Shown here: positions 10,875 through 39,742 of the stretch, one piece after another
Layout: every line of letters begins with the position of its first letter
Numbering within the stretch: the stretch's first letter is position 1
Assembly: GCA_019637225.1 (NCBI GenBank)
Contig: JAHBWC010000006.1
Coordinates: forward strand, 62,001-126,000
Length of the DNA: 64,000 nucleotides
From: Labilithrix sp.
GTDB taxonomy: Bacteria; Myxococcota_A; Polyangia; Polyangiales; Polyangiaceae
Reading direction: 5' to 3'
Translations under genes and position numbers: made by a program
The notes under the pieces: generated by a model
The model's database searches: none
The model's input: the letters and a program-made list of their open reading frames with translations, nothing else
Told to the model about the DNA's origin: nothing

Positions 10875-10898
10875 GCTTCAACGGAGCCGCCGATCGAG
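10875..10898 (-). repeat. solo truncated CRISPR repeat left of fic
   Basis: 24 bases match the first part of the oldest repeat variant exactly (starting GCTTCAACGGAGC and continuing through CGCCGATCGAG). The second half of the repeat is missing, and the sequence runs into the 3' end of the fic gene 14 bp further on. Orientation is the same as the main array (crRNA sense on minus). It marks the left limit at which CRISPR DNA can be recognised. Confidence 0.85.
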
Positions 10899-10912
10899 GC
10901 CAGGACGAGCTC

Positions 10913-12124
10913 CTACTTCCTTGGGCGGGTGAGCTCGGTGCCGACCTTCAGCCGATCCAGGTAGGCGCGGTAGGCGAAGGAGCGATCGCGCTTCTTCCCC
11001 GTCGACTCGACCAGGACGCCGGCGTCGACGAGCAGCTCGACGGCTCGGATCGCCGTCGGCTTGGTGGTGTCGAGCAGCTTCGTCGCGGAGGCTACGGACA
11101 CGATCGGGTGGCGCGGCAGGAGCTCGAGGAGGCGCAGCGACCCGATGGAAACCTTGTCGGTGGAGAGTACGCGCGCGCGATCTTCGGCCACGAGCGCGAA
11201 CAGCTCGCGCGCGGCGGCGACGGCCTCGTTGGCGATCGTGGCGACCCCATCGAGGAAGAAGTCGATCCAGCCCTCCCAGTCGCCGTCGACCCGCACGGCG
11301 TCGAGACGGCGGTAATAGTCGTCGCGGTGGCGCTTGAAGAAGAGGCTCAGGTAGAGGAGCGGCTTGGTCAGCAGCTTCCAGTGCTCGAGCAACAGCGTCA
11401 CGAGCAAGCGGCCGATGCGCCCGTTCCCGTCGAGGTACGGGTGAATCGTCTCGAACTGCACATGGAGCAGACCCGCGCGCACGAGCGGGTGCTGCGCGTC
11501 CTCGCCGTGGAGGTACTTCTCGAACGCGCTCAGCAGCGCGCCGAGGGCGTGCGGCGGTGGCGGCACGTACATCGCGTTGCCGGGGCGGCTGCCACCGATC
11601 CAATTCTGGCTCCGACGCACCTCGCCGGGCTGCTTCTCGGCGCCGCGCACGCCACGCATCAGCCGTCGATGCGCCTCGTTGAGGAGCCGCATCGACAGGG
11701 GCAGGCCGCGCGGATCGGCGAGCTCTGCGCGCGAGTACACGAGCGCGTCGAGGTAGTTGCACACCTCCTCGACGTCGGCGTTCGGCGCGGCCTTCTCGTC
11801 CGTCGCGGTGGCATCCTCCTGCGCTTCGAAGGCGAGCAGGTCGACGAGAGTGGCCTGCGTGCCCTCGATTTGGGACGACACGACGGCCTCCTTGCGGACG
11901 AAGGCGTAGATGAACCAGTCGAGCGACGGCACCATCTCGCCCGCCAACTCGAGCCGAACGAGCGACTGCTCGGCCGCCCGCAGGCGGTCGACAAGCGCCG
12001 AGGTAAGCGCCAGCGGCGGATCCGCCGGCGGAAGCGCGAGCGGGATGAACGCCGCGATCTCCTCACCGCCGACCGTGCTCCGCTCGAGTCTTCCGGTCGT
12101 TCGCGTCGGCATCCTGGGCTCCAT
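10913..12124 (-). CDS. Fic family AMP-transferase-like protein with winged-helix C-terminus
   Basis: 403 residues from ATG 12124. ATG 12112 with GGAG just upstream is a plausible alternative. Domain order: an N-terminal Fic_N-type helical region with SSQIEG at 83-88, which fits the inhibitory (S/T)xxxE(G/N) helix of class II Fic proteins; the Fic core with the complete active-site loop HPYLDGNGRIGR (His about 228); then a winged-helix-like segment (about 315-390). Such proteins usually transfer AMP to a target, with the inhibitory Glu blocking ATP binding. Here that is family knowledge, and the target is unknown. The gene lies between a solo CRISPR repeat and an old repeat block, so it appears to have entered the array tail. 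The upstream operator cluster suggests autoregulation through its winged helix. Confidence 0.88.
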   Translation of the reverse strand: MEPRMPTRTTGRLERSTVGGEEIAAFIPLALPPADPPLALTSALVDRLRAAEQSLVRLELAGEMVPSLDWFIYAFVRKEAVVSSQIEGTQATLVDLLAFEAQEDATATDEKAAPNADVEEVCNYLDALVYSRAELADPRGLPLSMRLLNEAHRRLMRGVRGAEKQPGEVRRSQNWIGGSRPGNAMYVPPPPHALGALLSAFEKYLHGEDAQHPLVRAGLLHVQFETIHPYLDGNGRIGRLLVTLLLEHWKLLTKPLLYLSLFFKRHRDDYYRRLDAVRVDGDWEGWIDFFLDGVATIANEAVAAARELFALVAEDRARVLSTDKVSIGSLRLLELLPRHPIVSVASATKLLDTTKPTAIRAVELLVDAGVLVESTGKKRDRSFAYRAYLDRLKVGTELTRPRK

Positions 12125-12243
12125 GAGTCACGGCTGCTTGACCGGTCCGGAGCACTAGTCACGTCTGCTTGACTAGCGAGGGCAGCTAGGAAAGACATCT
12201 TGACTAGCAGCGGACACTAGTCAAGAAAACTTGACTAGTGTCC
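12125..12243 (-). promoter_or_regulatory. repeated CTTGACTAG operator cluster with perfect palindrome upstream of fic
   Basis: The motif CTTGACTAG or close variants recurs about every 30 bp (near 12137, 12167, 12198 and 12230). The distal end is a perfect 14-bp inverted repeat: arms 12212-12225 and 12230-12243 around an AAAA loop. The location immediately upstream of the fic start, the regular spacing and the dyad symmetry fit a multi-site repressor operator. The AT-rich centres could also serve as promoter elements. Confidence 0.7.
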
Positions 12244-12382
12244 GTTGGCGAGGCGAAGGCTACCGCTCGGCGTTGGCTAAAAACATGAGTTATTTTATGG
12301 CATTGGGTTGGTGCCAGCGTAGGTGTAAGCTAGCTCTTCTTCTCGTGTGCGCGGGCATCGAGGCCACGCCGACCATGCGCGG

Positions 12383-12633
12383 GTTTCAACGGAGCCGCCG
12401 ATCGAGTTCGACGGGGGCGCGGTGGCGCCACTCGACGAGCAGACGGGCACGCCTTCAACGGAGCCGCCGATCGAGATCGGCGGAAGGCCGGCGACCTGCA
12501 GGCGGAGCTCGACCTCGAGACGGTGCTTCAACGGAGCCGCCGATCGAGATCGGCGGAAGGAGGGCTCGACGAACGGCACATGGGTCCAGGTCGACCTGCT
12601 TCAACGGAGCCGCCGATTGTGGTCGATGGATAG
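12383..12633 (-). CRISPR. fossil CRISPR block A (4 repeats, 3 spacers)
   Basis: Repeats at 12383-12418, 12452-12487, 12525-12560 and 12598-12633. All carry GGAG where the main array has GTAG. The two central repeats end in GGCGGAAGG rather than GGCGGAGAG. The first is mutated in its 3' half, and the last keeps its first 20 bases and then degenerates. Spacers are 33-37 bp. These are the most diverged repeats, hence the oldest, and are separated from the rest of the array by the nucleotidyltransferase cassette. Confidence 0.93.
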
Positions 12634-12809
12634 GTGAGTCTGTCGAGGACAGCGCCACAGCGTCAGGACCGCGGTCGGTCCTCGGACTGCCACCCGGCAC
12701 GAATGAAGCAACTCAGTGGACTTGCCGCAGTCGTCCGCGGCGCTAGCGTCGCTCTCGAGGGCGTTCGCTTGCATGGCCGGGGGCCCCGCCGTAGGCTTGC
12801 CAAAGGACG

Positions 12810-13004
12810 ATGGATCGCAACCTCGACCTTCCTCAGCGGCTTGATCCCCGTGTTCGCGCGGAGGAGAAGAGCGCGTCTCGTGAAGACGATGCTCGAGCGC
12901 TCGCGATGCAGCTCAAGAGCGCGGAGGATCTTCGCGCCGAGAATGGGAAGTTCGCGTTCCCTCGTGCCTCGATCGATTGGTCGAGCGCGCGCCGCCACTG
13001 GTGA
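12810..13004 (+). CDS. small protein coupled to nucleotidyltransferase (possible antitoxin partner)
   Basis: 64 residues from ATG 12810 with an AAAGGA ribosome-binding site just upstream. The protein is highly charged and probably helical (REDDARALAMQLKSAEDLRAENG), ending in a Trp/Arg-rich tail. Its TGA stop overlaps the GTG start of the next gene as GTGA, the arrangement expected for a translationally coupled pair. Small gene plus AbiEii-like nucleotidyltransferase is a common toxin-antitoxin layout. The antitoxin role is inference. The pair sits between two fossil CRISPR blocks. Confidence 0.6.
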   Translation: MDRNLDLPQRLDPRVRAEEKSASREDDARALAMQLKSAEDLRAENGKFAFPRASIDWSSARRHW

Positions 13005-13798
13005 GTGCGGGTCCGCAGCTCTCATACCGGGACACTGCTGAGATCCTCGTCCGCCTTGGCGCTGTAGCTGAGGACATCGTCCTCATCGGCGGGCAGGCGC
13101 TTCACTTTTGGGTCAGCCAGTATGCGGCGCGCGATTCGTTCCTGTCGTCGGGAGCGCCCTTTACGAGCAAGGACGTCGACTTTTGCGGCGACGCCGAGGA
13201 GGCGCGAGCCGCAGCCGAAGCGCTCGGTGGAGAGGTTTGCGTTCCATCGCTGGACGATGCGACTCCCTCGACTGCGCTCGTGCGCTTCGAACACTCGGGC
13301 GCCAAGCACGAGATCGACTTCCTCGACAAGCCGCACGGTATTACTCGACTGGACGTCGAGCGGATGAGTCTCCTCGTCCACACGGGCATCGGCGAAGGGC
13401 GCTTCCGCGTGCTGCCTCCGATCCTTTGCATGGAGAGCCGGATCTGTAACGCCAGCCTTCCCGGCTACACGACCCCGCAGGCGCTTCGACAACTGCGCGC
13501 TTCAATCGTCTGCGCGCGCGAGTTCCTATGCGACCTCCTCGAGCACCAGGGGCTGCGTCCCTTCCTCAAGGCTGCGGAGCGCGTGTTTCGATTCACTCGC
13601 CTTCGCCTGCAAGCAAGGAACGTCTACGACGACCATGGGATAGATGCGCTGGACGCGATCCCGAGAGGACGTCCCGAGCCTGGCCTCGTGATGTTCAACG
13701 CTCAACGCCTTTCGCAGATGGAGACCATCCTCGCTCGGGAAAGGGCTCGGCGGCGTGCGATGGCTCAGGCACGAAGCCCGAGGTCGCCCGACCAGTAG
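13001..13798 (+). CDS. nucleotidyltransferase-fold protein, AbiEii-like
   Basis: 265 residues if started at GTG 13001, preferred because it overlaps the upstream stop (GTGA). TTG 12977 would add eight residues. The N-terminal half has the nucleotidyltransferase signature: IVLIGGQALHFW (about 26-37), then SKDVDFCGD with the DVD metal ligands at about 58-60, and a later EIDF acidic strand. This is as in AbiEii/MNT-type transferases of abortive-infection and toxin-antitoxin systems. The C-terminal half is helical. The last codons lie in what looks like a degenerate CRISPR repeat (about 13787-13809), so the 3' junction falls inside a repeat. Likely a defence or TA cassette; substrate unknown. Confidence 0.72.
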   Translation: MSAGPQLSYRDTAEILVRLGAVAEDIVLIGGQALHFWVSQYAARDSFLSSGAPFTSKDVDFCGDAEEARAAAEALGGEVCVPSLDDATPSTALVRFEHSGAKHEIDFLDKPHGITRLDVERMSLLVHTGIGEGRFRVLPPILCMESRICNASLPGYTTPQALRQLRASIVCAREFLCDLLEHQGLRPFLKAAERVFRFTRLRLQARNVYDDHGIDALDAIPRGRPEPGLVMFNAQRLSQMETILARERARRRAMAQARSPRSPDQ

Positions 13799-14247
13799 GT
13801 GGCGGAGAGGGGAGCGATGCCCGCATCTCGGGCCGTTTGGCCCCGGCTTCATGGGAGCCGCCCGATCGAGACCGGCGGAGAGGCCCGCGCCCCTGAGGGT
13901 GCCGTGGGCCATGGAGCCGCTTCAACGGAGCCGCCGATCGTGATCGGCGGAGAGTGATCAAGATCACGCCCTCTGTCTCCGGCAACCTCGTGCTTCAACG
14001 GAGCCGCCGACCGCGATCGGCGGAGAGAGCACCCGGCGCGGCGAGCGAACGTGCGAAGCGTGGTGCTTCAACGGAGCCGCCGATCATGATCGGCGGAGAG
14101 TACACCGGCGAGTGCGCGTGCCTCGTCGGCACGATCGCGCTTCAACGGAGCCGCCGATCGTGATCGGCGGAGAGGCGCCGCGCGGCATCATCATCGCCGG
14201 TGAGGAGGGTGGCTTCAACGGCTCCGCCGATCGTGATCGGCGGAGAG
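13787..14247 (-). CRISPR. fossil CRISPR block B (6 clear repeats plus one half repeat)
   Basis: Clear repeats at 13846-13882 (37 bp, mutated), 13919-13954, 13992-14027, 14065-14100, 14139-14174 and 14212-14247, with spacers of 36-38 bp. Most carry GGAG and a GATCGTGATC-type stem core. The repeat at 13992 already has the young core (GACCGCGATC). A degenerate repeat end GGCGGAGAG at 13801-13809 lies exactly 36 bp (one spacer) before the first clear repeat and overlaps the end of the nucleotidyltransferase gene. The block is intermediate in sequence between block A and the main array. Confidence 0.92.
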
Positions 14248-14267
14248 AGCCCTTCACGGTGTCGTGC

Positions 14268-14622
14268 GTCAGTAAGACTGACCCCCTCGCGTCACTAAAG
14301 CTGACCCCTTCCTGGAGTTCGAAAGGAAGGTAAAGTCGATGGAAGTAGAGAAGAAAATGGCTCCTCTCGGTGCGGAGGTAGCGATGATCGAGGCGGAGCT
14401 CGCACGTGCCGAGACCGAGGGCACGCTCGACGCGAAGCTCACCTTCTTCGCCAAGCCGAAGCTCCTCGTCATCGACGAGGTCGGCTATCTGCCCTTCGAG
14501 AAGCGCGCCGCACACCTCTTGTTTCAGCTCGTCGCCCGGCGCTACGAGCGCGGGAGCTCGCTGATCACGACGAACCAGGTCGTGACGCAGTGGGGGGCCG
14601 TCTTCGGTGACGACGTGTCGAT
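14268..14622 (+). mobile_element. IS21-type insertion sequence remnant inside the array
   Basis: A 20-base spacer stub follows the last repeat of block B. Then two related 18-base motifs, each ending CTGACCCC, occur at 14268-14285 and 14291-14308, resembling the repeated terminal sites of IS21-family elements. An istB fragment follows and is cut off about five bases before repeat 1 of the main array. istA, the start of istB and the other IS end are missing. An insertion followed by a deletion that also removed neighbouring repeats explains the structure. Confidence 0.75.
14390..14617 (+). pseudogene. istB: truncated istB (IS21 transposition ATPase)
   Basis: About 75 residues match the middle of IstB. 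They include the segment ARAETEGTLDAKLTF, the Walker B region KLLVIDEVGYLPF and the later SSLITTNQ and WGAVFGDDV blocks. The N-terminal half with the Walker A loop is absent, and the reading frame ends in the first CRISPR repeat. It cannot make a working helper ATPase. The preceding 50 codons of open frame are not IstB-like. Confidence 0.8.
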
Positions 14623-17600
14623 GCTTCAACGTAGCCGCCGACCGCGATCGGCGGAGAGCCTTCGCGATGCCCGTTGCCTGCCTCAGTTGGTTGTTGCTTC
14701 AACGTAGTCGCCGACCGCGATCGGCGGAGAGGAGGAGGTGCGGTGGGTCACGCCCCATCACGGTCAGGCGCTTCAACGTAGCCGCCGACCGCGATCGGCG
14801 GAGAGACCGACCGCCAGATCCGGTTCTTGACCCTCTGGCACGCTTCAACGTAGCCGCCGACCGCGATCGGCGGAGAGTCCTTGAAGTCGATGCAGAGCAC
14901 CGCCATCTCGTCGCTTCAACGTAGCCGCCGACCGCGATCGGCGGAGAGTTCATGGGCCTCCGGCCCGTCATCCACTTCCGCGATGCTTCAACGTAGCCGC
15001 CGACCGCGATCGGCGGAGAGCGGATCTCGCCGAGGTGCCGCGTCCGCGCGGCGAACAAGCTTCAACGTAGCCGCCGACCGCGATCGGCGGAGAGGCTGCT
15101 CGCGAGGGCCTCGTGATCCCCGCTGTGGCCAGCTTCAACGTAGCCGCCGACCGCGATCGGCGGAGAGCGGAGATGCTCGTCGGCGGCGGTCGCCGCGACT
15201 TGGTGCTTCAACGTAGCCGCCGACCGCGATCGGCGGAGAGCTCGCGTTCTGGCGCAGCCACGAGGACGGGTCACCGTCGCTTCAACGTAGCCGCCGACCG
15301 CGATCGGCGGAGAGAGATCGCGATCGCGATGCCGCTCGCGCACGCGAGCCCGCTTCAACGTAGCCGCCGACCGCGATCGGCGGAGAGCTGCGGAGCGAGG
15401 CGGTTGCCCACCGCCTTCGTCCGGCTTCAACGTAGCCGCCGACCGCGATCGGCGGAGAGTCACGTGGCGCTTCGTCCTCGGCATCGACTACGGCTTGCTT
15501 CAACGTAGCCGCCGACCGCGATCGGCGGAGAGCCGCCTTCGCCGCCGAAGTACTTCGCGGCCTGCTTCGCGCTTCAACGTAGCCGCCGACCGCGATCGGC
15601 GGAGAGCGCTCGAGGGTGTCGTGTCCTGGATGTACCAGGACGTGCTTCAACGTAGCCGCCGACCGCGATCGGCGGAGAGCCTGATCTGGGGCGGCCGCGT
15701 CCTCGTCATCAGCACGCAGCTTCAACGTAGCCGCCGACCGCGATCGGCGGAGAGATCTCCGCCGGCGCACTGTGGAACGACTTCCTTGGTGCGCTTCAAC
15801 GTAGCCGCCGACCGCGATCGGCGGAGAGGAGCCGCCGAGGTCGACGTGCCACATCGGCTCGACGCCGCTTCAACGTAGCCGCCGACCGCGATCGGCGGAG
15901 AGCCGGACAACGCGCCGCCGCTCGCGGGCCTGCGCACGTGGCTTCAACGTAGCCGCCGACCGCGATCGGCGGAGAGGACGACCGACCCCGGCGAGGACGA
16001 TGCCCCGACTCAGTGCTTCAACGTAGCCGCCGACCGCGATCGGCGGAGAGACGCGATCACCGAGGAGGCGCTCGGCGACGCCGGCTAGCTTCAACGTAGC
16101 CGCCGACCGCGATCGGCGGAGAGACAACTCGGACGCGCCGACGGCCGAGTCGATCGCCTGGCTTCAACGTAGCCGCCGACCGCGATCGGCGGAGAGCGAC
16201 TACGTCGAGGCGAGGCGGCCCGGCTACCTCTTGCTTCAACGTAGCCGCCGACCGCGATCGGCGGAGAGGCGCCCGCCGCTCACCTATCTCGCGTACACGG
16301 GCAGGCTTCAACGTAGCCGCCGACCGCGATCGGCGGAGAGCGCATGTCGATGCGCCCCGCGGCCTCGGCCGGCGCGTCGCTTCAACGTAGCCGCCGACCG
16401 CGATCGGCGGAGAGCGCCGGGGAGCGCGCGCGTCGCGCCATCGAGAGGAGCGGCTTCAACGTAGCCGCCGACCGCGATCGGCGGAGAGGAGGTGACCGGT
16501 GATCGCCCTCCTCGCAGCCGTCGCGCTTCAACGTAGCCGCCGACCGCGATCGGCGGAGAGGCCGCCTCGTCCACCCCCGTCGTCGCCGCCCCCAAGGCGC
16601 TTCAACGTAGCCGCCGACCGCGATCGGCGGAGAGCACCGGCGCCGAACACATCCCGGACTGGGACGCGCTGCTTCAACGTAGCCGCCGACCGCGATCGGC
16701 GGAGAGCCTCCTCCGCCGTCCCGTGCGCGTCGGCGACGTCCTGCTTCAACGTAGCCGCCGACCGCGATCGGCGGAGAGGCAGCCCGACGATCGACCACAA
16801 GGGCATCGTGACGTTGCTTCAACGTAGCCGCCGACCGCGATCGGCGGAGAGTGGCCGCCAGCCGCGCCGATGATGAGCAGCGACCCGCCGCTTCAACGTA
16901 GCCGCCGACTGCGATCGGCGGAGAGAGCAACGGCGTCCACTGGTGGCACTCCGTGCGAGCGACGCTTCAACGTAGCTGCCGACCGCGATCGGCGGAGAGC
17001 GGTGACGCCGTGCGCGTGGCGACAGAGCGCGAGGTCGCTTCAACGTAGACGCCGACCGCGATCGGCGGAGAGGTGCCTGGCGCCCGTCAATCGCTCGTGC
17101 ACGACGGCATGCTTCAACGTAGCCGCCGACCGCGATCGGCGGAGAGGTCGCCCTCGGGCCCGATCGTGTCGTCGGGCGCGTTGCTTCAACGTAGCCGCCG
17201 ACCGCGATCGGCGGAGAGGCACCGTCGCGTCCGGCGTGGCGACGCTGCTCGACTGGCTTCAACGTAGGCGCCGACCGCGATCGGCGGAGAGTCGCAGAAA
17301 GAGCACACGGCGATGATGATGACGATGATGCTTCAACGTAGCCGCCGACCGCGATCGGCGGAGAGACCTCGAGGAGCGGGCGTCGTCGGCGCTCGCGCTC
17401 CTCGCTTCAACGTAGCCGCCGACCGCGATCGGCGGAGAGATCCGGTGCTCAAGGACTACGCCGACCTCACGTCGCTGCTTCAACGTAGCCGCCGACCGCG
17501 ATCGGCGGAGAGGAGGCGCTGCTCGAGGTCTTCGGACCCGAGAAGGTGCTGCTTCAACGTAGCCGCCGACCGCGATCGGCGGAGAGATCCCGTTCACGCC

Positions 17601-20600
17601 CGTTGCGTCGCCGGCGAACCGGCTTCAACGTAGCCGCCGACCGCGATCGGCGGAGAGATGCGTGGCTTCCTCACGGCGGACGCGGCGGCACGCGTGCTTC
17701 AACGTAGCCGCCGACCGCGATCGGCGGAGAGAGGGCCCTCGTTGAGGGCTGGCCACCGGCTGGCCCCGCTTCAACGTAGCCGCCGACCGCGATCGGCGGA
17801 GAGACCTCACGATTCCCCCGGCGGACGGATGAACTACGCTGCTTCAACGTCGCCGCCGACCGCGATCGGCGGAGAGCAGCTTCCGCGAACGCGCCTCGAT
17901 CATTGCCGCGAGCTTGCTTCAACGTAGCCGCCGACCGCGATCGGCGGAGAGCGCCGTGACGAACGCGCGACCACTTGTTCCACTTCGTCACGCTTCAACG
18001 TAGCCGCCGACCGCGATCGGCGGAGAGTCGCGCTCGCCTCGTTCGTTCCGGCCGAGGTCGAGGCGCTTCAACGTAGCCGCCGACCGCGATCGGCGGAGAG
18101 TTGGCGAGACCTTCGGCCTCCAGTTTCTTTATCTTGGGCTTCAACGTAGCCGCCGACCGCGATCGGCGGAGAGCTGGCTTCGCCGTGGGGGATGACTGGA
18201 AGCCTTACGCGCTTCAACGTAGCCGCCGACCGCGATCGGCGGAGAGTCGTCGGCTTCGATGTCCTTGCGCCCGCAGTAGAGGCTTCAACGTAGCCGCCGA
18301 CCGCGATCGGCGGAGAGTGGCGGAGCGCGGCGGACACCTCGCCCGTCTCGTGGCTTCAACGTAGCCGCCGACCGCGATCGGCGGAGAGATCGAGGCCGTC
18401 AGCAGCCTCGCGGTCGACATCCTCGCTTCAACGTAGCCGCCGACCGCGATCGGCGGAGAGACCGCAGCCGTGTCGGCGCCTGGACGGGACCGCAGGCTTC
18501 AACGTAGCCGCCGACCGCGATCGGCGGAGAGGCGGAGTGCTCTTTTTGAGCGTCTCTCGCTCCTTCTCGCTTCAACGTAGCCGCCGACCGCGATCGGCGG
18601 AGAGTCATGAGCGTGAGCCACCATGAGGCGCGAGCCTGCCGGCTTCAACGTAGCCGCCGACCGCGATCGGCGGAGAGAACGCGTGGTTTGCGACGGAGGT
18701 GCAGTGATGGCGACGCTTCAACGTAGCCGCCGACCGCGATCGGCGGAGAGACGAGCTGAGCCGTGCTTGTCGTCGACGATCGCGGCGCTTCAACGTAGCC
18801 GCCGACCGCGATCGGCGGAGAGGGTGTGTTCGAGGACGGCGACAACACGAGGGGCGTAGCGCTTCAACGTAGCCGCCGACCGCGATCGGCGGAGAGACGA
18901 CGCGTCCCGTCTATCTCGCGCTCGCCGGCAGCGAGCTTCAACGTAGCCGCCGACCGCGATCGGCGGAGAGAACATGGCAGCGAAGAAGAAGACGCGGCGT
19001 CCGCCGCGCTTCAACGTAGCCGCCGACCGCGATCGGCGGAGAGCATTGTGTTGCTTTCCGGTGATTGCCAATGCCTGCACTTCAACGTAGCCGCCGACCG
19101 CGATCGGCGGAGAGTTCCGGTGCTCACATACAGCGTGCCATCCTCCGCATAACTTCAACGTAGCCGCCGACCGCGATCGGCGGAGAGGAAGAAGGCCGAG
19201 GAGCTCGTGCTGCGCGTGGTGCGCACTTCAACGTAGCCGCCGACCGCGATCGGCGGAGAGAGGGCCCCTGGACCACGTACGCGTCGTAGTTGATGCCACT
19301 TCAACGTAGCCGCCGACCGCGATCGGCGGAGAGCGAGCAGGTCCTCGATTTCCGCCATCCGCTCCGGCTCCGACTTCAACGTAGCCGCCGACCGCGATCG
19401 GCGGAGAGGAACCGCGGGCCGCGTGTTCACCACTACGACCGCGTCACTTCAACGTAGCCGCCGACCGCGATCGGCGGAGAGGGGCCACATGCCCGATGCG
19501 AGAGGTGTCGGCCCGGACCACTTCAACGTAGCCGCCGACCGCGATCGGCGGAGAGGTCGGCGCCGGCCAGCTCGATCTCGTCGACCCGGAACACTTCAAC
19601 GTAGCCGCCGACCGCGATCGGCGGAGAGCGGCTCCCTTGTCGAAGTGGCGCGAGCCGGCGCAGCGACTTCAACGTAGCCGCCGACCGCGATCGGCGGAGA
19701 GGGCACGCATGGCCGTCGATGCCATGGGCGACTCTCAACTTCAACGTAGCCGCCGACCGCGATCGGCGGAGAGCGACCGCGGCGCGGCGGAGGGCGACGC
19801 ATCGGACTCTCCACTTCAACGTAGCCGCCGACCGCGATCGGCGGAGAGCGCTCTCGATCGCGCGCCGTGGCTCCTGAACGTCGCACTTCAACGTAGCCGC
19901 CGACCGCGATCGGCGGAGAGGCGCACGCGCCGCTGGCGCGAGCAGATGTCCCTGCTCCAACTTCAACGTAGCCGCCGACCGCGATCGGCGGAGAGGGCGA
20001 GTGAAAGTCATTGGTGATGCTGTAGCGAGTCACTTCAACGTAGCCGCCGACCGCGATCGGCGGAGAGAGCGGCACTCGGAAGCGGTCGTTGCCGCGCAGA
20101 GCGCACTTCAACGTAGCCGCCGACCGCGATCGGCGGAGAGCCGCGCCACGTGAGAAAAGGACTTGCCATGCGTGGGACTTCAACGTAGCCGCGCGACCGC
20201 GATCGGCGGAGAGATCTCCTCCCGCGTCGCGCGCGCGCCGCCAGGGCGCACACTTCAACGTAGCCGCCGACCGCGATCGGCGGAGAGGTTCGGCCGAGGT
20301 TCCTGGGGCACCCGTGGAGGATTGACTTCAACGTAGCCGCCGACCGCGATCGGCGGAGAGATGGTTGCTTGGTGCGAGGGCATTCCGGACAAGATTACTT
20401 CAACGTAGCCGCCGACCGCGATCGGCGGAGAGGCCGCCGCGGCTGCCGCCCTCGGCATCCAGCAGCAGACTTCAACGTAGCCGCCGACCGCGATCGGCGG
20501 AGAGGAGGTCTCGAGAGCAGCTCGGTGGTCGCCTCATGACACTTCAACGTAGCCGCCGACCGCGATCGGCGGAGAGAAGACGCTCGGCGCGATCGTCGCC

Positions 20601-23600
20601 GACCAGCAGCAGCAACTTCAACGTAGCCGCCGACCGCGATCGGCGGAGAGCGCCCTATCGGCTCCCGCCGGGGATCGACGACGAGGCACTTCAACGTAGC
20701 CGCCGACCGCGATCGGCGGAGAGCCCGGCGCGCTCCTCAGCCAGAATCCGACCCACCATACTTCAACGTAGCCGCCGACCGCGATCGGCGGAGAGATCGA
20801 GGAGCACAACACCCGCACGGGTCGCCGCGCCGCACTTCAACGTAGCCGCCGACCGCGATCGGCGGAGAGCCGGAGGCGACGTACGCGGGCACGGGCGTCA
20901 TCCTCACACTTCAACGTAGCCGCCGACCGCGATCGGCGGAGAGCCGCGGGATGGCCTCGCGCCGCGCCCGCGCGTCGAAGGACTTCAACGTAGCCGCCGA
21001 CCGCGATCGGCGGAGAGATTGTCGGGGCAGGGGTCGCGGCATCTCAGAAGGCATACTTCAACGTAGCCGCCGACCGCGATCGGCGGAGAGAGGAGCGCGA
21101 CCGCGGGCTCGAAGGCCCCCCCCGTCGACTTCAACGTAGCCGCCGACCGCGATCGGCGGAGAGGCTTGGCCGTCGGGGACCTTCGTGGGCGCGCGCTTCG
21201 CACTTCAACGTAGCCGCCGACCGCGATCGGCGGAGAGCGTCGCACGACGACGTCAACGAGCTCGCGCTCGACATACTTCAACGTAGCCGCCGACCGCGAT
21301 CGGCGGAGAGGGGCATCGGGCGCACGTACGCGGCCGCGAAGCGCACACTTCAACGTAGCCGCCGACCGCGATCGGCGGAGAGTTCGCGATCGCGGCGGTC
21401 CCGAAGGTCGCCACGACGTCACTTCAACGTAGCCGCCGACCGCGATCGGCGGAGAGCGCTGCCAGAGCGACTTGAAGACCTCCTTCTGGTCGTGACTTCA
21501 ACGTAGCCGCCGACCGCGATCGGCGGAGAGCCTCGACGGTGACCCTCTTGGCGGCACGGAGCCCTCACTTCAACGTAGCCGCCGACCGCGATCGGCGGAG
21601 AGCACCTGGGCGTCGGGCAACGGCCAGCGGGCACTTCGTCACTTCAACGTAGCCGCCGACCGCGATCGGCGGAGAGGCCCGCAGCAGCCGTGGTTCGGGT
21701 CCGTCCTCGGCGTACTTCAACGTAGCCGCCGACCGCGATCGGCGGAGAGCCCGAGACCGAGGCCGCGAGAGGCCCCGAGGTCTGGACTTCAACGTAGCCG
21801 CCGACCGCGATCGGCGGAGAGGACCGGTTTGCGGAGTACGCCCACGGCGAGGACTGCACTTCAACGTAGCCGCCGACCGCGATCGGCGGAGAGCCACGTC
21901 GACCCTGTCGAGCACCTCATGCTCGTACACACTTCAACGTAGCCGCCGACCGCGATCGGCGGAGAGGCGGCCGTTCGAGCCTCGCACGAACGAGGCGGCG
22001 CCACTTCAACGTAGCCGCCGACCGCGATCGGCGGAGAGCGTTCTTCTCGAGATCCCACGCGACGCCCTGGGCGAACTTCAACGTAGCCGCCGACCGCGAT
22101 CGGCGGAGAGCGGGGGTCGGAACTGGACGGCTACCGGCCGGCGCACTTACTTCAACGTAGCCGCCGACCGCGATCGGCGGAGAGGGCGCCGGACGAGCGC
22201 ACCCGAGCAGTGACATGCAGCCACTTCAACGTAGCCGCCGACCGCGATCGGCGGAGAGTCGGCTGGGCGACAGCCCGAAACGACGAGGCCGGGTAACTTC
22301 AACGTAGCCGCCGACCGCGATCGGCGGAGAGTCCTCGGAGTGCCGGCGCAGGTGCTCTCGCTCATTCAGACTTCAACGTAGCCGCCGACCGCGATCGGCG
22401 GAGAGGCGTTGCGCTCGCACTTCGCCGAGTGGAGGTGCATGTGACTTCAACGTAGCCGCCGACCGCGATCGGCGGAGAGGCGCTGCGCCAGACGTCCGAC
22501 AGCCAGCCTTCCGACTCACTTCAACGTAGCCGCCGACCGCGATCGGCGGAGAGAGCCCTCCGCCCGCCATGCCGCCGCTCGGATCGCTCGCCACTTCAAC
22601 GTAGCCGCCGACCGCGATCGGCGGAGAGTCCACGGCTCCGGCTGGGAGTAGTCGGGGATCGGTAACTTCAACGTAGCCGCCGACCGCGATCGGCGGAGAG
22701 CAGGCCGACCTTCCCGTCCTTCTGGACGACGTCCTTACTTCAACGTAGCCGCCGACCGCGATCGGCGGAGAGGACGCCGACGTCACGTGGCGTGACGCGG
22801 TGCTCGGACTTCAACGTAGCCGCCGACCGCGATCGGCGGAGAGAGCGTCGCGCGGAAGCCGGTCCAGACGGCGAGCCCGGTACTTCAACGTAGCCGCCGA
22901 CCGCGATCGGCGGAGAGCGTCCGAGCCCGCGATGCGGTCGCCCCACTGCGCGGTACTTCAACGTAGCCGCCGACCGCGATCGGCGGAGAGGCCGCGGCGA
23001 GGATGTCGGCGTGGAACGTGTTCCACGCACTTCAACGTAGCCGCCGACCGCGATCGGCGGAGAGCCGGAACACGTCGCGCGACCGCTGCGCCGGGTGCGG
23101 ACTTCAACGTAGCCGCCGACCGCGATCGGCGGAGAGCAGCCCGCTGACGACGACCGCGCTCGGCGACGAAGTACTTCAACGTAGCCGCCGACCGCGATCG
23201 GCGGAGAGCCCGGCGCGCGTCGCGGTGTCGCCGCACGGCGCGAACACTTCAACGTAGCCGCCGACCGCGATCGGCGGAGAGGCTCCGGAGCGCTGCCGCG
23301 CCGTGGCGACCGCCTACGGACTTCAACGTAGCCGCCGACCGCGATCGGCGGAGAGGAGGTGCGCGCGGTGCTCGGCGGCGCTCGAGCACCGCTCACTTCA
23401 ACGTAGCCGCCGACCGCGATCGGCGGAGAGGCGACGAGCTCGTCGCCGGGGAGCATGCCCAGGAGGTCACTTCAACGTAGCCGCCGACCGCGATCGGCGG
23501 AGAGCCGCCCCGACCGAGTCTGCGACCACCCTCACCTCCAACTTCAACGTAGCCGCCGACCGCGATCGGCGGAGAGCGGCAAGAGCACGCATCTCGCGCT

Positions 23601-26600
23601 CGCTCGCTCGGGACTTCAACGTAGCCGCCGACCGCGATCGGCGGAGAGGTTGGCGAGCCCCGCGATCAGGTCCGACCCGACCTGCGACTTCAACGTAGCC
23701 GCCGACCGCGATCGGCGGAGAGAGTCGAAGCCGTTGCGAAGCTGCTCGAGCGGCTGAGCACTTCAACGTAGCCGCCGACCGCGATCGGCGGAGAGGAGGC
23801 AGTGCTGGCGCCACTCGGCGTCCGCCTTTGACTCACTTCAACGTAGCCGCCGACCGCGATCGGCGGAGAGACCGTGAGCGGCTCGAGAACGAACACGCTG
23901 AACGGCTCGACACTTCAACGTAGCCGCCGACCGCGATCGGCGGAGAGTACGAAGCGTCGTGGGGGCGTCCGTGAGCGCGCTCGTACTTCAACGTAGCCGC
24001 CGACCGCGATCGGCGGAGAGGAGGCAAGTGGTTCGCGCGTCTGCGGTACAGCAGCAAACTTCAACGTAGCCGCCGACCGCGATCGGCGGAGAGCCCAGTC
24101 GCGGCAGTGCTCCCACTCGGTCCGTTCCGCACTTCAACGTAGCCGCCGACCGCGATCGGCGGAGAGGTCGTTGGGGCTCGGCGTCGCCGTTGCGCAGAGC
24201 TTACTTCAACGTAGCCGCCGACCGCGATCGGCGGAGAGAGGGCGGCTTCACGCCGAACTTGTCCTGGTAGCGGTAACTTCAACGTAGCCGCCGACCGCGA
24301 TCGGCGGAGAGAGCTCGCCTTCGCCTCCGCGGCGACGGCAGCGCCGCGCACTTCAACGTAGCCGCCGACCGCGATCGGCGGAGAGCCCTCCGATGTGCCC
24401 GCCTGGGCGCGAGCTCGCGCTGGTACTTCAACGTAGCCGCCGACCGCGATCGGCGGAGAGAAGTCGAAGCCGCTCGGGCTCAACGTCGGGCACTGCACTT
24501 CAACGTAGCCGCCGACCGCGATCGGCGGAGAGTCCCCGTCCGCAGTCACCTCGATCGGGTTGATCGACTTACTTCAACGTAGCCGCCGACCGCGATCGGC
24601 GGAGAGGCGACGAACGAGCTTGCATCGAGGGGAGCTTAGGCAGACTTCAACGTAGCCGCCGACCGCGATCGGCGGAGAGATCCCGGAAAGGCAAGGCAGA
24701 GCTGAGAGACCCACGGACTTCAACGTAGCCGCCGACCGCGATCGGCGGAGAGGATGCGCACGCCGTCCTGAGCGGGAGGCAGCTGCAGACTTCAACGTAG
24801 CCGCCGACCGCGATCGGCGGAGAGGCGATCGATGCCGGTGGCGACCTCGAGACGCACGGCCACTTCAACGTAGCCGCCGACCGCGATCGGCGGAGAGGTA
24901 CGACGCGCGTGGCTCTCACGGACGACGCACCGGAACTTCAACGTAGCCGCCGACCGCGATCGGCGGAGAGCCTTTCCTTCCTCGGGCGCCGTCGCACCCG
25001 TGCTGCAACTTCAACGTAGCCGCCGACCGCGATCGGCGGAGAGGTGCCGCAACCTCACCGACGGATTCGTCCCGCGCTCACTTCAACGTAGCCGCCGACC
25101 GCGATCGGCGGAGAGTAGCGATGGGCAATGACCGTCGAGTGCGCGCCAACGTACTTCAACGTAGCCGCCGACCGCGATCGGCGGAGAGTTGTCCGAGAGG
25201 AGCACCTGGTCAGCGCGTTCGCAGGTACTTCAACGTAGCCGCCGACCGCGATCGGCGGAGAGGGGGGCGTTCGCGGCCACCTCGCAGTGGACGATCGGAC
25301 TTCAACGTAGCCGCCGACCGCGATCGGCGGAGAGGTGCCGGTGCCTCGTCTGGGACGCCGGAACGATGACACTTCAACGTAGCCGCCGACCGCGATCGGC
25401 GGAGAGCAGCGAAGGGCCAGACGTCGCTCTTCGCCGAGCCGGCACTTCAACGTAGCCGCCGACCGCGATCGGCGGAGAGCTGTTAATGCAATGGATTCAA
25501 TATCTGTCATCCAATGACTTCAACGTAGCCGCCGACCGCGATCGGCGGAGAGCCGGATTACATCGTCGGGAGGGTTGTGGGATGAAACACTTCAACGTAG
25601 CCGCCGACCGCGATCGGCGGAGAGCTCCGGGATCTGCGGCCACGTCGACGTGACGAAGGGCCTACTTCAACGTAGCCGCCGACCGCGATCGGCGGAGAGG
25701 ACGATGCCCGGTCTGCGGACCTTCCCGCGGGCGATCTACTTCAACGTAGCCGCCGACCGCGATCGGCGGAGAGGGTGCCCTCGAACGTGAGCGCGACCTC
25801 CATCTCCGTACTTCAACGTAGCCGCCGACCGCGATCGGCGGAGAGGCGCCGCGTGCGCATTGACGTGATGCTCGACGATGCCACTTCAACGTAGCCGCCG
25901 ACCGCGATCGGCGGAGAGTCGATGAGGGGCGTCGTCGGCCCCGACGCGGATGCTGACTTCAACGGAGCCGCCGACCGCGATCGGCGGAGAGGCCACGCCT
26001 CCTCGTCCGGGTTCGTGTGCAGACTGACACTTCAACGTAGCCGCCGACCGCGATCGGCGGAGAGGCAGGCGGTCCGTCGGCGGCGCGGCGTCGTGCCGGA
26101 CCTACTTCAACGTAGCCGCCGACCGCGATCGGCGGAGAGAGGGCACGTGGTCGCCGTTTGGGCCGCGCGACGCGTACACTTCAACGTAGCCGCCGACCGC
26201 GATCGGCGGAGAGGTGTCGAGCCGCTGAACGGGCGCATGCGCGCCGAGGCACTTCAACGTAGCCGCCGACCGCGATCGGCGGAGAGACGCCTCGATGGTG
26301 GGCACGGTGCGCTCGTCGAGGCTCACTTCAACGTAGCCGCCGACCGCGATCGGCGGAGAGAGCGCGAGCGCGTCGAGGAGCGGCAGCAGGCCGAGACACT
26401 TCAACGTAGCCGCCGACCGCGATCGGCGGAGAGGAGTCTGGAGACCGCTCGTGGGCCGGCAAGGCCGGGACTTCAACGTAGCCGCCGACCGCGATCGGCG
26501 GAGAGGGCCTTCTTGCCGTCGAGTTCCTGCTCCTGAGAGCGACTTCAACGTAGCCGCCGACCGCGATCGGCGGAGAGCGAGCACGGGCAGCGCCATCTCG

Positions 26601-28777
26601 TGGGCCCAGGTCGCACTTCAACGTAGCCGCCGACCGCGATCGGCGGAGAGGACGGCACTTTTGGAAGATGTAGGTCGTGTCCGGCTTACTTCAACGTAGC
26701 CGCCGACCGCGATCGGCGGAGAGGACGAGGACGGGCGCTTCACCGCTCTCGTCTCCAACGACTTCAACGTAGCCGCCGACCGCGATCGGCGGAGAGATCC
26801 GGCGCATCGTCGACCTGCACGCGCTTGCGGACAAACTTCAACGTAGCCGCCGACCGCGATCGGCGGAGAGTTGTGGAAGATCATCGTAGCCCCCGCGGCT
26901 CGACGCACTTCAACGTAGCCGCCGACCGCGATCGGCGGAGAGACGAACTCGCTCGGGACCTCACCCCACCGCTGCCACTCACTTCAACGTAGCCGCCGAC
27001 CGCGATCGGCGGAGAGGTCCGGATCGGTCCTGTTGACGCAGCCGGCGACCTCACTTCAACGTAGCCGCCGACCGCGATCGGCGGAGAGGTGGTCGGTTGT
27101 CGGGTACGGCCTTCACGGCAGGCCTCCACTTCAACGTAGCCGCCGACCGCGATCGGCGGAGAGTGCCGGAGGCCGAACGATGATCGACGTCAGACTCGCG
27201 ACTTCAACGTAGCCGCCGACCGCGATCGGCGGAGAGCTCGCGGTCGACTGGCCGCAAGCCGACCTCATCATCACACTTCAACGTAGCCGCCGACCGCGAT
27301 CGGCGGAGAGGCGCGCCTCGTGGGCCGGCTTGCCGCCGCTCACCTTCTTACTTCAACGTAGCCGCCGACCGCGATCGGCGGAGAGCGGGACGCTCATTCA
27401 CATCGGCCTCGAGGTCTGGTGACTTCAACGTAGCCGCCGACCGCGATCGGCGGAGAGGCGAGTCGTGCGGGCACGCCTTCGCCGTCGAGCATGCGACTTC
27501 AACGTAGCCGCCGACCGCGATCGGCGGAGAGGCGAGCTGAGCGTCGCTCGGCCACTCCTCCCATTCGGGACTTCAACGTAGCCGCCGACCGCGATCGGCG
27601 GAGAGGGAAGGGCGGCTCGCGGTGCTTCTGGCGCTCGCTGGGACTTCAACGTAGCCGCCGACCGCGATCGGCGGAGAGGGCGCGCGCGCAGCAGGTCTAC
27701 GCGCTCGGGCAGACACTTCAACGTAGCCGCCGACCGCGATCGGCGGAGAGTCGCGCTCGCGACGTCCCCGACGGACCTCACGAGCTTACTTCAACGTAGC
27801 CGCCGACCGCGATCGGCGGAGAGCGGCGCACGTCACGTCGAGCATGCGATCGACGACGTCACTTCAACGTAGCCGCCGACCGCGATCGGCGGAGAGGCCG
27901 TCGCGGGCCGCGGGCTCGCAGGCGCCGTCGCGCGACTTCAACGTAGCCGCCGACCGCGATCGGCGGAGAGTGGCCGGTCGCTACGACACGACGCAACCCG
28001 ACGCAGGACTTCAACGTAGCCGCCGACCGCGATCGGCGGAGAGGCTAGCGTGTCCGACCACTCGGGCATGCCCGCCGTGGGACTTCAACGTAGCCGCCGA
28101 CCGCGATCGGCGGAGAGTCTACGATGACCCGCAGATGTTCGGCGACGCGGGTGACTTCAACGTAGCCGCCGACCGCGATCGGCGGAGAGCGCGGCTCCGG
28201 CGGAGGCCCGCGCTCGTTCGTCCACGTACTTCAACGTAGCCGCCGACCGCGATCGGCGGAGAGTTACTGATGTTTGTGTAAGAAGTCGCCTCAAAAGAAA
28301 CTTCAACGTAGCCGCCGACCGCGATCGGCGGAGAGCGGGCGGCACGAGCGTCACGATCGGCGGCTCCGGCATACTTCAACGTAGCCGCCGACCGCGATCG
28401 GCGGAGAGCGCCGTAGGTGACGAGGAGCTCGCGCGTCGCCGACGAACTTCAACGTAGCCGCCGACCGCGATCGGCGGAGAGCCCTCGCGGGGAACGAGAC
28501 GAGGTGCCGGCGCGGTGTCACTTCAACGTAGCCGCCGACCGCGATCGGCGGAGAGGATCCGAAGTCGCTTCCAATCTGAGGGCGTCATGATCGCACTTCA
28601 ACGTAGCCGCCGACCGCGATCGGCGGAGAGATCGTCATTGCCACCGAGACCCGATACGCGTTCGCCTAACTTCAACGTAGCCGCCGACCGCGATCGGCGG
28701 AGAGTCTCGACGACGACGGCCAGCTTTCGCTGGAGCTCGGTACTTCAACGTAGCCGCCGACCGCGATCGGCGGAGAG
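14623..28777 (-). CRISPR. main subtype I-G CRISPR array, about 194 repeats / 193 spacers
   Basis: The 36-bp repeat on the plus strand begins GCTTCAACGTAGC or ACTTCAACGTAGC and ends GGCGGAGAG, with a 7-bp stem CCGCCGA/TCGGCGG around a 6-base loop. Spacers are 35-41 bp, mostly 36-38. The reverse complement ends in GTTGAAG plus T or C, the usual type I 5' handle form, so crRNA is read on the minus strand. The leader is at the high-coordinate end beside cas2, and degenerate repeats lie at the opposite end. Hand count: 61 repeats with edge base G (14,623-19,043), then 133 with A (19,079-28,777). Variants: 14696, 16890, 16964, 17037, 17256 and 17841 (single substitutions), 20177 (37 bp, one-base insertion) and 25956 (GGAG instead of GTAG). 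Confidence 0.98.
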
Positions 28778-29234
28778 GCACCTCGGAGGACCATGGCGAT
28801 AACAGCTGCTTAGCGAGCGGAATGCGAGCGGTGGCGCGCGAGGACGCGGCGAGGCCCTCCGCTGGGACGTGCAGTGTCGCGCCACCGCTCGCAATGCGTG
28901 AAATTTCAAAGAACAAGCGATCTGCGAGCGGTTGGTGGGAGCTTGCTCGCATTTCGGTGCTCGTCGAGCGAGGAGCCGGCGGAGCGCCGGTGAGGTGCCG
29001 CTTGATACGCGACGATCCCCGCGTGGATAGCTTGTGGATAACTTCGGCCGCATTGGGCCTTCGATACCGCTGCGGCGACTCGTGCGCTGTGACCGCGTCG
29101 TGACGGTCGCTGTCTTGAGTCGGTAGCCGATCATCCGAAGACGATGATGATGGCAGTGAGTGGTCACGTCCAGTCAGCCGCGTCCCGGCTCGCTGCAGTC
29201 CAGCGGACATCGAAGTCGGACCGTTCTCGTGCGG
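28778..29234 (-). promoter_or_regulatory. CRISPR leader between array and cas2
   Basis: 457 bp between the youngest repeat and the cas2 stop codon. No gene is evident. It contains a tandem 11-base repeat (GTGGATAGCTT / GTGGATAACTT, 29023-29044) and AT-richer patches (around 28900-28920) that stand out from the GC-rich surroundings. By position it should hold the array promoter firing leftward and the sequence recognised by the Cas1-Cas2 integration machinery. Confidence 0.75.
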
Positions 29235-29525
29235 CTACACCACGATGGCCCGCCTCTCCGGCGCCGTGTAGATTTTCCCGATCGCGCGTATGGACGTGCT
29301 TCCACGTCCTTCGACCGGTCCGACATCGACGAAGAGCACCTGATCTTCGGCGTTGTTGATCACGTGAGCGAGCTTCGAGCGAAGCTCGACGAGCTCGCGA
29401 GCGTTCATCTCGCAGCGGAACACCGAGAGCTGGATGTGGTCCCCCCACCCGCGCATGAGGCGGTAGACGCGTCGAAGGCGCTTGGGACACGAGATGTCGT
29501 AGCTGACGATGAAGGTCTGGCGCAT
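29235..29525 (-). CDS. cas2: CRISPR integration protein Cas2
   Basis: 96 residues from ATG 29525, the typical Cas2 length. It starts RQTFIVSYDISCPKRLRRV, with the conserved first-strand Asp (YDI). It continues with the ferredoxin-like fold pattern, including HIQLSVFRCEM and the strand DQVLFVDVGP. Cas2 dimers bridge two Cas1 dimers to insert spacers at the leader end. The gene is last in the cas operon, nine bases after cas4-cas1, and nearest the leader. Confidence 0.95.
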   Translation of the reverse strand: MRQTFIVSYDISCPKRLRRVYRLMRGWGDHIQLSVFRCEMNARELVELRSKLAHVINNAEDQVLFVDVGPVEGRGSTSIRAIGKIYTAPERRAIVV

Positions 29526-29534
29526 GATCGCGGC

Positions 29535-31433: not shown

Positions 31434-31493
31434 CGCTACCTCCGCGGACGCGGTGCGCTTCCAGCGTTCGCTGCCTGGAGCTCGAGCGGCGGG

Positions 31494-32417
31494 TCATGGC
31501 GTTGCCCGCTTCGCGACGCTCGCAGGGGAGAAGCTCCCATAGCCGCCTTGGTCGCTTCGGCCGATCGACGATTCGAAGACAACCGATATCCCGCGCGCCC
31601 GGAGGACTCGGGGCTCGACCTCGAAGAGCTCGGCCGACGTTACGAGGGACTGGACCACGCTGCGCTCGAGGGCGCCGGACCAGATCGGCCACCGGAAGAA
31701 CCCGGTCTTCCAGCCGCCTCTGCATCCTGTGGTGACGATCTTGTCCTCGTCGGGCACCACGCGGATGAACGGGAGCCCTCGGAACGCGAGCCAGTCTGCG
31801 CCTGGTACGCCGAGCTTCTTCTCCTTCGACGGATCGCTCGCCCGGAGCGCGTAGTCGCGCGCCTGCGAGTTGTCCCACTGAAGAACGGGCAGGGGGCGCG
31901 CGTAACGCCATGTGCCGAAGAGCGCTTCTTCGAGATCCTCGCGTGTCGACCCTTCGCGAAGGGCAGTGACCATCGCGAGGAACTCCTGCTGCCCAGCGGT
32001 GAAGTGGAGGGCAGTGGGCTTCGTGTTGCCGTTGTTGTCCGTCGCGACGTCCGTGGCGAACGCGCCCGCATAAGACAAGCTGCGAGGCGACTCTAGCTGT
32101 GCGAGGTACTCGACGTACCTCTTCGGCAGAGGCTTGAGGTCGTGTGCCTCGGCGCCGCCCTCCTTCTTCTCGTAACGGAGGTTGAGCGCCGGTTCTTTGG
32201 CGAAATCCGCGAGGTCCTCGGCGAGCCGATCGAGCAGCGCTTCGCGATCAGGGCCGCCGATGAGGACCGGGCGGTACGTGCCCACGTTTTTCCAGGCGAT
32301 CTTCGGCGTCGGCCCCTCCGGCAGGGGCCGGTCCGCGAGAACGTTGAGCACCCCGAGCGCCGCCAGAAACGCGAGCGGGTTCTTTCCGTCGAGGCCGGTG
32401 AAGATGAGCTCGCTCAT
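31494..32417 (-). CDS. cas8g: short Cas8g-like protein of subtype I-G (GSU0052 family)
   Basis: 307 residues from ATG 32417, overlapping the cas3 stop as ATGA. The N-terminus (MSELIFTGLDGKNPLAFLAA) is typical of the small protein that follows cas3 in I-G/I-U operons, proposed as the Cas8-type large subunit or a Cas3 extension. Further conserved-looking blocks are SYAGAFATDV (about 115), FTAGQQEFLAMV (about 140), FGTWRYARPL (about 167) and a late WPIWSG. A role in PAM recognition or Cas3 recruitment within Cascade is family-level inference. It is far shorter than Csx17-type Cas8 proteins. Confidence 0.8.
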   Translation of the reverse strand: MSELIFTGLDGKNPLAFLAALGVLNVLADRPLPEGPTPKIAWKNVGTYRPVLIGGPDREALLDRLAEDLADFAKEPALNLRYEKKEGGAEAHDLKPLPKRYVEYLAQLESPRSLSYAGAFATDVATDNNGNTKPTALHFTAGQQEFLAMVTALREGSTREDLEEALFGTWRYARPLPVLQWDNSQARDYALRASDPSKEKKLGVPGADWLAFRGLPFIRVVPDEDKIVTTGCRGGWKTGFFRWPIWSGALERSVVQSLVTSAELFEVEPRVLRARGISVVFESSIGRSDQGGYGSFSPASVAKRATP

Positions 32418-39720: not shown

Positions 39721-39742
39721 TCACAATCGGCTCCGTTGAAGC
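39715..39742 (+). repeat. inverted solo CRISPR repeat forming the 3' end of addA
   Basis: On the plus strand CGCCGATCACAATCGG followed by CTCCGTTGAAGC is the reverse complement of an old-type (GGAG) repeat lacking three stem bases. Its orientation is opposite to the main array. The last seven codons and the TGA stop of addA (39721-39742) lie inside it. It is the rightmost recognisable CRISPR sequence. Confidence 0.85.

What the first reader, a model, noticed from the sequence alone, without database searches (positions are those of the whole stretch)
10875..14622. Toxin-like gene cassettes embedded in the fossil tail of a CRISPR array
Moving away from the leader, old-type repeats recur at 13,846-14,247 and 12,383-12,633, and as a solo copy at 10,875. 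Between them sit, respectively, a small-ORF/nucleotidyltransferase pair and a Fic gene. The junctions fall inside repeats: the last repeat of block A keeps only its 5' part, a repeat 3' end (GGCGGAGAG) reappears at 13,801 right at the nucleotidyltransferase stop, and the solo repeat keeps 24 bases before fic. CRISPR repeats seem to have served as entry or recombination sites for defence cassettes. The array tail may be an integration niche, and the degenerate repeats could control the toxins in the manner of CreTA modules.
Basis: partly seen in the sequence, partly recalled or inferred. Interest (0 to 1): 0.72.

Follow-up and report, generated by a model that had tools for sequence, protein, structure and literature searches.

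The report
Decayed CRISPR tail; real guide elsewhere
Two ordinary mobile genes and a transposon scrap sit in the worn-out old end of a very long type I-G CRISPR array with no sign that the CRISPR repeats control them, but a genuine repeat-derived guide, aimed at a site just upstream of the cas genes, lies 25 kb away and recurs in other type I-G systems.

Summary
Old-type repeats lie at 10875, 12383-12633 and 13846-14247, the 9-nt remnant at 13801 is exactly in register, and fic and a small-ORF/nucleotidyltransferase pair lie between them. An IS21 remnant separates this tail from the main array (193 repeats). The interpretation mostly fails. Fic orthologues (75-81%) occur in a dozen genomes of the family, none with an array detected nearby; nucleotidyltransferase homologues likewise. 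Junctions fall in repeats about as often as chance predicts, and other type I-G arrays with visible tails carry no such genes. No tail spacer matches the fic or nucleotidyltransferase promoters. This is leader-distal decay with foreign inserts. Testing the CreTA idea led elsewhere: a 36-nt pseudo-repeat (39453-39418, minus) upstream of the cas operon is followed by a pseudo-spacer whose best match in the whole window is a site 220 bp upstream with a TTC PAM. A congener has the same arrangement, and about ten loci in several phyla show it, far above decoys. This looks like a CreR/CreA-type guide in subtype I-G, which the papers I could search do not describe. Whether it represses cas or a toxin is open.

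The parts
10875..10898 (+). solo old-type repeat, first 24 of 36 nt
   Evidence: exact 24/24
10913..12124 (-). fic, SoFic-like class II Fic protein (403 aa)
   Evidence: Fic_N and Fic domains; PADLOC SoFic E 7.5e-113; solved SoFic relatives
12125..12240 (.). fic promoter region with CTAGTCA/TTGACTAG palindromes
12383..12633 (+). four old-type repeats (first and last diverged at their 3' part on this strand)
12810..13004 (+). small ORF, 64 aa, conserved upstream of nucleotidyltransferase homologues
12977..13798 (+). nucleotidyltransferase-fold protein (GGQA...SKDVDF)
   Evidence: homologues; model and fold search
13801..13809 (+). last 9 nt of a repeat, in register with the next unit
13846..14247 (+). 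six old-type repeats
14267..14622 (+). IS21 remnant with end-like motifs and an IstB fragment
   Evidence: (PF01695)
14623..28777 (-). main type I-G array, 193 new-type repeats, transcribed leftwards
28778..29100 (-). leader region, 70% alike in G004
29235..38677 (-). type I-G cas genes: cas2, cas4-1 fusion, cas8g, cas3, cas5-6, cas7
39418..39453 (-). pseudo-repeat psiR-a, 26/36 identical to the repeat, last 13 nt exact
39378..39417 (-). pseudo-spacer psiS-a
39608..39640 (-). partial target of psiS-a (39637-39608) with TTC PAM at 39640-39638
39489..39557 (-). 22-codon ORF between target and guide, possible creT (unproven)
   Evidence: read sequence
39707..39742 (+). second degenerate old-type repeat psiR-b, hairpin kept, no target found

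Best explanation
10875-14622 is the oldest, leader-distal end of a type I-G CRISPR array in a Labilithrix-type myxobacterium. It decayed and was broken up by three unrelated foreign inserts: an IS21 element now reduced to a scrap, a small-ORF/nucleotidyltransferase pair, and a stand-alone fic gene with its own promoter. The repeats around them are passive scars and do not control the genes. Fic most likely regulates itself through its N-terminal inhibitory helix and its operators (inferred). Repeat-derived regulation does appear in this system, but at the other end: a pseudo-repeat plus pseudo-spacer (39453-39378, minus) most likely makes a crRNA-like RNA. That RNA would load into the I-G Cascade and bind a partly matching site with a TTC PAM at 39637-39608, repressing transcription towards the cas operon (CreR-like) or of a small toxin in between (CreTA-like). 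Shown by sequence: the guide/target pair, its recurrence and its statistics. Inferred: RNA production, binding, repression.
For: Tail: repeat map and register; IstB scrap; fic orthologues 75-81% identical in a dozen genomes and nucleotidyltransferase homologues, with no array in the stretches held; tails of G003, G006 and other type I-G arrays carry no genes; tail spacers do not match the two promoters. Guide: best plain match of psiS-a in all 64 kb is the site 220 bp upstream with CTTC; score 18 against a maximum of 13 in 3000 controls and 10 among 192 real spacers; same geometry and PAM in G003; survey 12 hits in 958 candidates against 6 in 9107 decoys; TT before the target in 10 of 14 non-array hits against 1 of 93 decoy hits.
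Against: No clean empty site was found for fic or the nucleotidyltransferase, so the order of insertion and decay is not seen directly. psiR-a does not keep the canonical hairpin, so processing by Cas5-6 is uncertain. No promoter was recognised near the target, the cas7 start is 930 bp away, and most other held congeners (G004, G006) show no such element by the same search.
Confidence: 0.75

Rival explanations
1. CRISPR repeats in the array tail act as entry or recombination sites for defence cassettes (an integration niche).
For: Two junctions lie inside repeats (10898/10899 and 13800/13801); three inserts in one tail is unusual.
Against: About half of an array is repeat, so this is chance level. 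No other visible type I-G tail carries genes, nor do G003 and G006. No integrase, and no target duplication beyond repeat-derived similarity.
Confidence: 0.07
2. The degenerate tail repeats and their spacers repress fic or the nucleotidyltransferase in the manner of CreTA.
For: Proximity only.
Against: All ten tail spacers score 2-5 against the two promoters where the 95th percentile of random 30-mers is 6; main-array spacers give nothing beyond chance; both genes occur without detectable arrays elsewhere.
Confidence: 0.03
3. The guide upstream of cas belongs to a CreTA toxin-antitoxin module: the interval between target and guide (39600-39454) encodes a toxic RNA or peptide, so cells become addicted to Cascade.
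For: Target, interval and guide are co-oriented as in CreTA; 130-220 bp interval also in G003, L133 and L145; a 22-codon ORF lies in the interval and a different mini-ORF in G003.
Against: The mini-ORFs are not alike and not shown to be expressed; in five other loci the guide is divergent from the first cas gene with the target between them, the CreR layout.
Confidence: 0.25
4. psiR-a and psiR-b are only relics of a lost second array, and the target match is accidental.
For: psiR-b is an old-type repeat with no target; psiR-a has lost the canonical hairpin.
Against: Match score beyond all controls, PAM, and the same arrangement in G003 and about eight other loci.
Confidence: 0.12
5. The mosaic tail is an assembly chimera.
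For: Draft metagenome-type assembly, 182 contigs, with a 14-kb repetitive array.
Against: Unit register is kept up to the junction (13801), the hybrid repeat at 13992 links old and new types, and backbone similarity with G004 holds on both sides.
Confidence: 0.06

Closest known systems
CreR cas-regulating RNAs (reported for types I-B, I-E, V-A; PMC13131331, PMC12737573)
   Same: crRNA-like guide from an ectopic degenerate repeat beside the cas operon, partial match to a site upstream of cas genes, PAM
   Different: subtype I-G; in the window and G003 the guide lies between its target and the cas genes on the same strand; no expression data
CreTA (types I-B and I-F; PMC9458426, PMC8501985, PMC10097628)
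   Same: degenerate repeat, pseudo-spacer with partial target and TTC PAM, interval of 130-200 bp between target and guide
   Different: no toxin shown; subtype I-G; second pseudo-repeat not recognised in the window
SoFic and class II Fic proteins
   Same: Fic_N plus Fic domains, HPYLDGNGRIGR active site, N-terminal SSQIEG inhibitory motif, C-terminal helix-turn-helix region aligned with SoFic
   Different: below the NCBIfam SoFic equivalog cut-off; embedded in a CRISPR tail here only
JHP933-type nucleotidyltransferases (AbiEii-like fold)
   Same: nucleotidyltransferase fold with GG and DxD motifs; small upstream partner ORF
   Different: no Pfam, NCBIfam or PADLOC family match; 14% identity to JHP933; low TM-scores (0.35-0.39)
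Transposon-interrupted or decayed CRISPR array trailers
   Same: leader-distal repeats degenerate and are interrupted by an IS remnant
   Different: two cellular toxin-like genes in addition to the IS

Membership tests
Type I-G CRISPR-Cas | cas4-cas1 fusion, cas2, cas8g, cas5-6 (csb2), cas7 (csb1), cas3 | tested here: met
CreTA (for the tail, 10875-14247) | pseudo-spacer partly matching the toxin promoter beside a PAM | tested here: not met
CreTA (39378-39640) | degenerate ectopic repeat with pseudo-spacer partly matching a nearby PAM-flanked site | tested here: met
CreTA (39378-39640) | toxin (creT) driven from the target site | tested here: inconclusive
   22-codon ORF at 39557-39489 only; no promoter found
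CreTA (39378-39640) | repression by Cascade, toxicity when relieved | not testable with these tools
   needs experiments
CreR | mini-CRISPR or pseudo-repeat beside the cas operon with partly matching target | tested here: met
CreR | target lies in the cas promoter | tested here: inconclusive
   target is upstream of cas7 on the same strand but 930 bp away, promoter not recognised; in L133, L155, L156, L176, L178, L180 the target is close to the first cas gene
CreR | autorepression of cas expression | not testable with these tools
   needs RNA or reporter data
SoFic-like class II Fic | Fic_N and Fic domains with inhibitory and active-site motifs | tested here: met
   motifs read from the sequence
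SoFic equivalog (NF046030) | curated score cut-off 550 | tested here: not met
   154 bits
Nucleotidyltransferase fold | fold similarity to solved nucleotidyltransferases, GG and DxD motifs | tested here: met

The most novel reading that the evidence does not exclude
Type I-G systems of several phyla carry CreR-like self-regulating guides. In the myxobacterial form the guide sits in the leader of the cas transcript, so the Cas5-6 processing enzyme releases from the cas mRNA the RNA that shuts the operon down.
Probability: 0.35. Interest if true: 0.65.

Novelty: new member of a known kind. Interest (0 to 1): 0.42.

Why it matters
The tail itself is ordinary: it shows that genes found inside an array tail need not be CRISPR-controlled. 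The guide upstream of cas extends repeat-derived cas regulation (reported for I-B, I-E and V-A in the papers I could search) to subtype I-G, where it recurs in about ten loci. That makes the question of how type I-G systems limit their own expression or enforce their retention directly testable.

Tried and rejected
Two region requests failed on length limits. Empty-site search: G004 keeps the flanking esterase and a two-repeat array, but the stretch between is unrelated, so no clean empty site. Tail spacers and main-array spacers against fic and nucleotidyltransferase: chance. Direct repeats at cassette ends: only a repeat-derived match at the fic ends, chance level at the nucleotidyltransferase ends. 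psiS-b target: none. Promoter and terminator scan of 38500-39850: nothing. The random-position null was contaminated by array positions; shuffled-tag decoys were used instead, and those may still include some array positions. L125 hits are duplicated spacers inside an array and were discarded. The first main-array spacer extraction used a wrong pattern and was redone. In the hit alignments mismatches at positions 6 and 12 (15 of 20) are not independent evidence, because the score ignored those positions.

Full report
OBSERVATION. The window lies in an 8.2-Mb draft genome. Its nearest held relatives are Labilithrix sp. assemblies (Polyangiaceae). Reading the sequence and scanning every position against the repeat confirms the anatomy. 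From the cas side the array runs 28777 to 14623 with 193 new-type repeats. After an IS21 remnant (about 14267-14622, IstB fragment) come six old-type repeats (13846-14247), a 9-nt repeat remnant exactly in register at 13801-13809, the nucleotidyltransferase (12977-13798) with a small ORF, four old-type repeats (12383-12633), fic (10913-12124, minus) and a 24-nt solo repeat (10875). A hybrid repeat at 13992 suggests the old and new types are one lineage. In transcript orientation the repeat ends in GTTGAAGC, like the (A/G)TTGAAGC end of most other type I-G loci, so 10875-14247 is the leader-distal end.

THE EMBEDDED GENES. Fic is a Fic_N-Fic protein, close to SoFic, with a complete active-site motif and an N-terminal inhibitory motif, so it should need no partner to be held in check (inference from class II Fic proteins). 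Its promoter carries CTAGTCA/TTGACTAG palindromes. Orthologues 75-81% identical occur in a dozen genomes of the family. DNA similarity covers the gene and, in some, the promoter, and no array was found in the stretches held. The second gene matched no family but its model has a nucleotidyltransferase fold (pLDDT 83, best hits JHP933 of H. pylori). Its 64-aa upstream ORF is conserved with it in eight genomes, counting a second copy in this genome, again with no array nearby. Both look like ordinary mobile toxin-like genes.

ENTRY SITES? Repeats fill half of an array. Of four definable junctions two lie in repeats, one in a spacer and one within about 5 bp of a repeat, as expected by chance. G003 and G006 have large arrays whose tails carry nothing. 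Among 45 type I-G arrays from GTDB genomes, 27 with visible tails, only L186 shows a gap over 150 bp, and that gap holds its cas region. G004 shares the backbone on both sides and has a two-repeat old-type array without either gene, but the stretch between esterase and array is unrelated, so no clean empty site exists. The niche idea is not supported.

CreTA IN THE TAIL? I scored each tail spacer, in crRNA orientation, for partial matches to the two promoters beside a TTN PAM, ignoring every sixth position. All ten scored 2-5, where random genomic 30-mers reach 6 at the 95th percentile. The 192 spacers, nearly all from the main array, gave nothing beyond chance either.

WHERE THE REPEAT-DERIVED GUIDE REALLY IS. 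The same scan for ectopic repeats found two degenerate repeats upstream of the cas operon. One, psiR-a (39453-39418, minus, same strand as cas), is 36 nt, 26 of 36 identical to the repeat, with the last 13 nt exact. The 30 nt that follow match a site 220 bp upstream (39637-39608), next to CTTC, with mismatches among the first 24 at 6, 12, 15, 18, 21 and 24. This is the best plain match in the whole window. Its score of 18 exceeds all 3000 controls (maximum 13) and all 192 real spacers (maximum 10). Congener G003 has a pseudo-repeat at the equivalent place with a different guide, whose target is 195 bp upstream, again with CTTC.

RECURRENCE. I collected 80 type I-G loci. Searching these plus the window and G003 for pseudo-repeats followed by a partial TTN-flanked target within 500 bp gave 12 hits in 958 candidates, against 6 in 9107 for shuffled tags, so about one of the 12 is expected by chance. 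Without requiring a PAM, 10 of the 14 non-array hits still had TT before the target, against 1 of 93 decoy hits. The ten come from the window, G003, and assemblies labelled Sandaracinus, Deltaproteobacteria, Reyranella (two), Halieaceae, Acidobacteria, Defluviicoccus and Bacillota. L145, L133, L173 and L176 keep a hairpin, with changed but still paired stems in L145 and L176. In L155, L156, L176, L178 and L180 the guide is divergent from the first cas gene with its target between them; in the window, G003, L133 and L145 target and guide are co-oriented with the cas genes (the cas start in L145 was not identified by reading frame).

MECHANISM. Most likely an RNA from psiR-a/psiS-a is processed by Cas5-6, loads into the effector and sits on the upstream site, too poorly matched to be cut, blocking transcription towards cas. 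That is how CreR guides are reported to work in types I-B, I-E and V-A (PMC13131331, PMC12737573). A CreTA reading, in which the interval between target and guide encodes a toxin, is not excluded: a 22-codon ORF lies there, as a different one does in G003. CreTA modules described so far likewise use degenerate repeats, a partial target and, in Haloarcula, a TTC PAM (PMC9458426); the Acinetobacter CreA pairs at 17 of 20 nt, all except 6, 11 and 18 (PMC10097628). None of the papers I could search describes CreR or CreTA in type I-G, but the primary CreR paper is not held, so its survey may already include this subtype. AT-rich PAMs are reported for I-G (TAT in B. lactis, PMC12915315); TTN for Geobacter is from my own knowledge.

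LIMITS. No RNA data; psiR-a lacks the canonical hairpin; no promoter was recognised; a draft assembly. The survey counts loci, not independent origins, and many contigs end before the cas promoter, so 10 of 82 is not a prevalence estimate.

VERDICT. Observation confirmed; the tail is ordinary decay with foreign inserts; the CreTA suggestion is wrong for the tail but led to a likely CreR/CreA-type guide upstream of cas.

Noticed in passing
39378-39640 (-) and G003 L088: Pseudo-repeat, pseudo-spacer and partial PAM-flanked target upstream of the cas operon: a likely CreR/CreA-type guide in subtype I-G, repeated in about ten type I-G loci.
   Followed up: yes
39707-39742 (+): A second degenerate old-type repeat on the other strand, hairpin intact with a 3-nt deletion, at the border between the cas region and the addA-like gene; no target found for the sequence after it.
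   Followed up: partly
19079: The first base of the repeat unit switches from G to A at this point and stays A up to the leader, a clean time mark in the array.
   Followed up: no
window spacer starting 23431; L024: The only spacer of the two-repeat array of congener G004 is 89% identical over 37 nt to a mid-array spacer of the window.
   Followed up: no
31494-38677: cas1 and cas2 are 79-94% alike among congeners, but the effector genes differ in sequence and order (cas7 first here, cas3 first in G003 and G004), suggesting effector-module replacement.
   Followed up: partly
39721-44580 (-): An AddA/RecB-like helicase-nuclease gene sits next to the cas operon in the window, G004 and G006.
   Followed up: no
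12125-12240: TTGACTAG motifs at 12169, 12200 and 12231 (31-bp period) and CTAGTCA partners in the fic promoter look like operators.
   Followed up: no
L125 16600-18400: The array of Sorangium cellulosum So0157-2 contains several neighbouring repeat-spacer units duplicated exactly.
   Followed up: no
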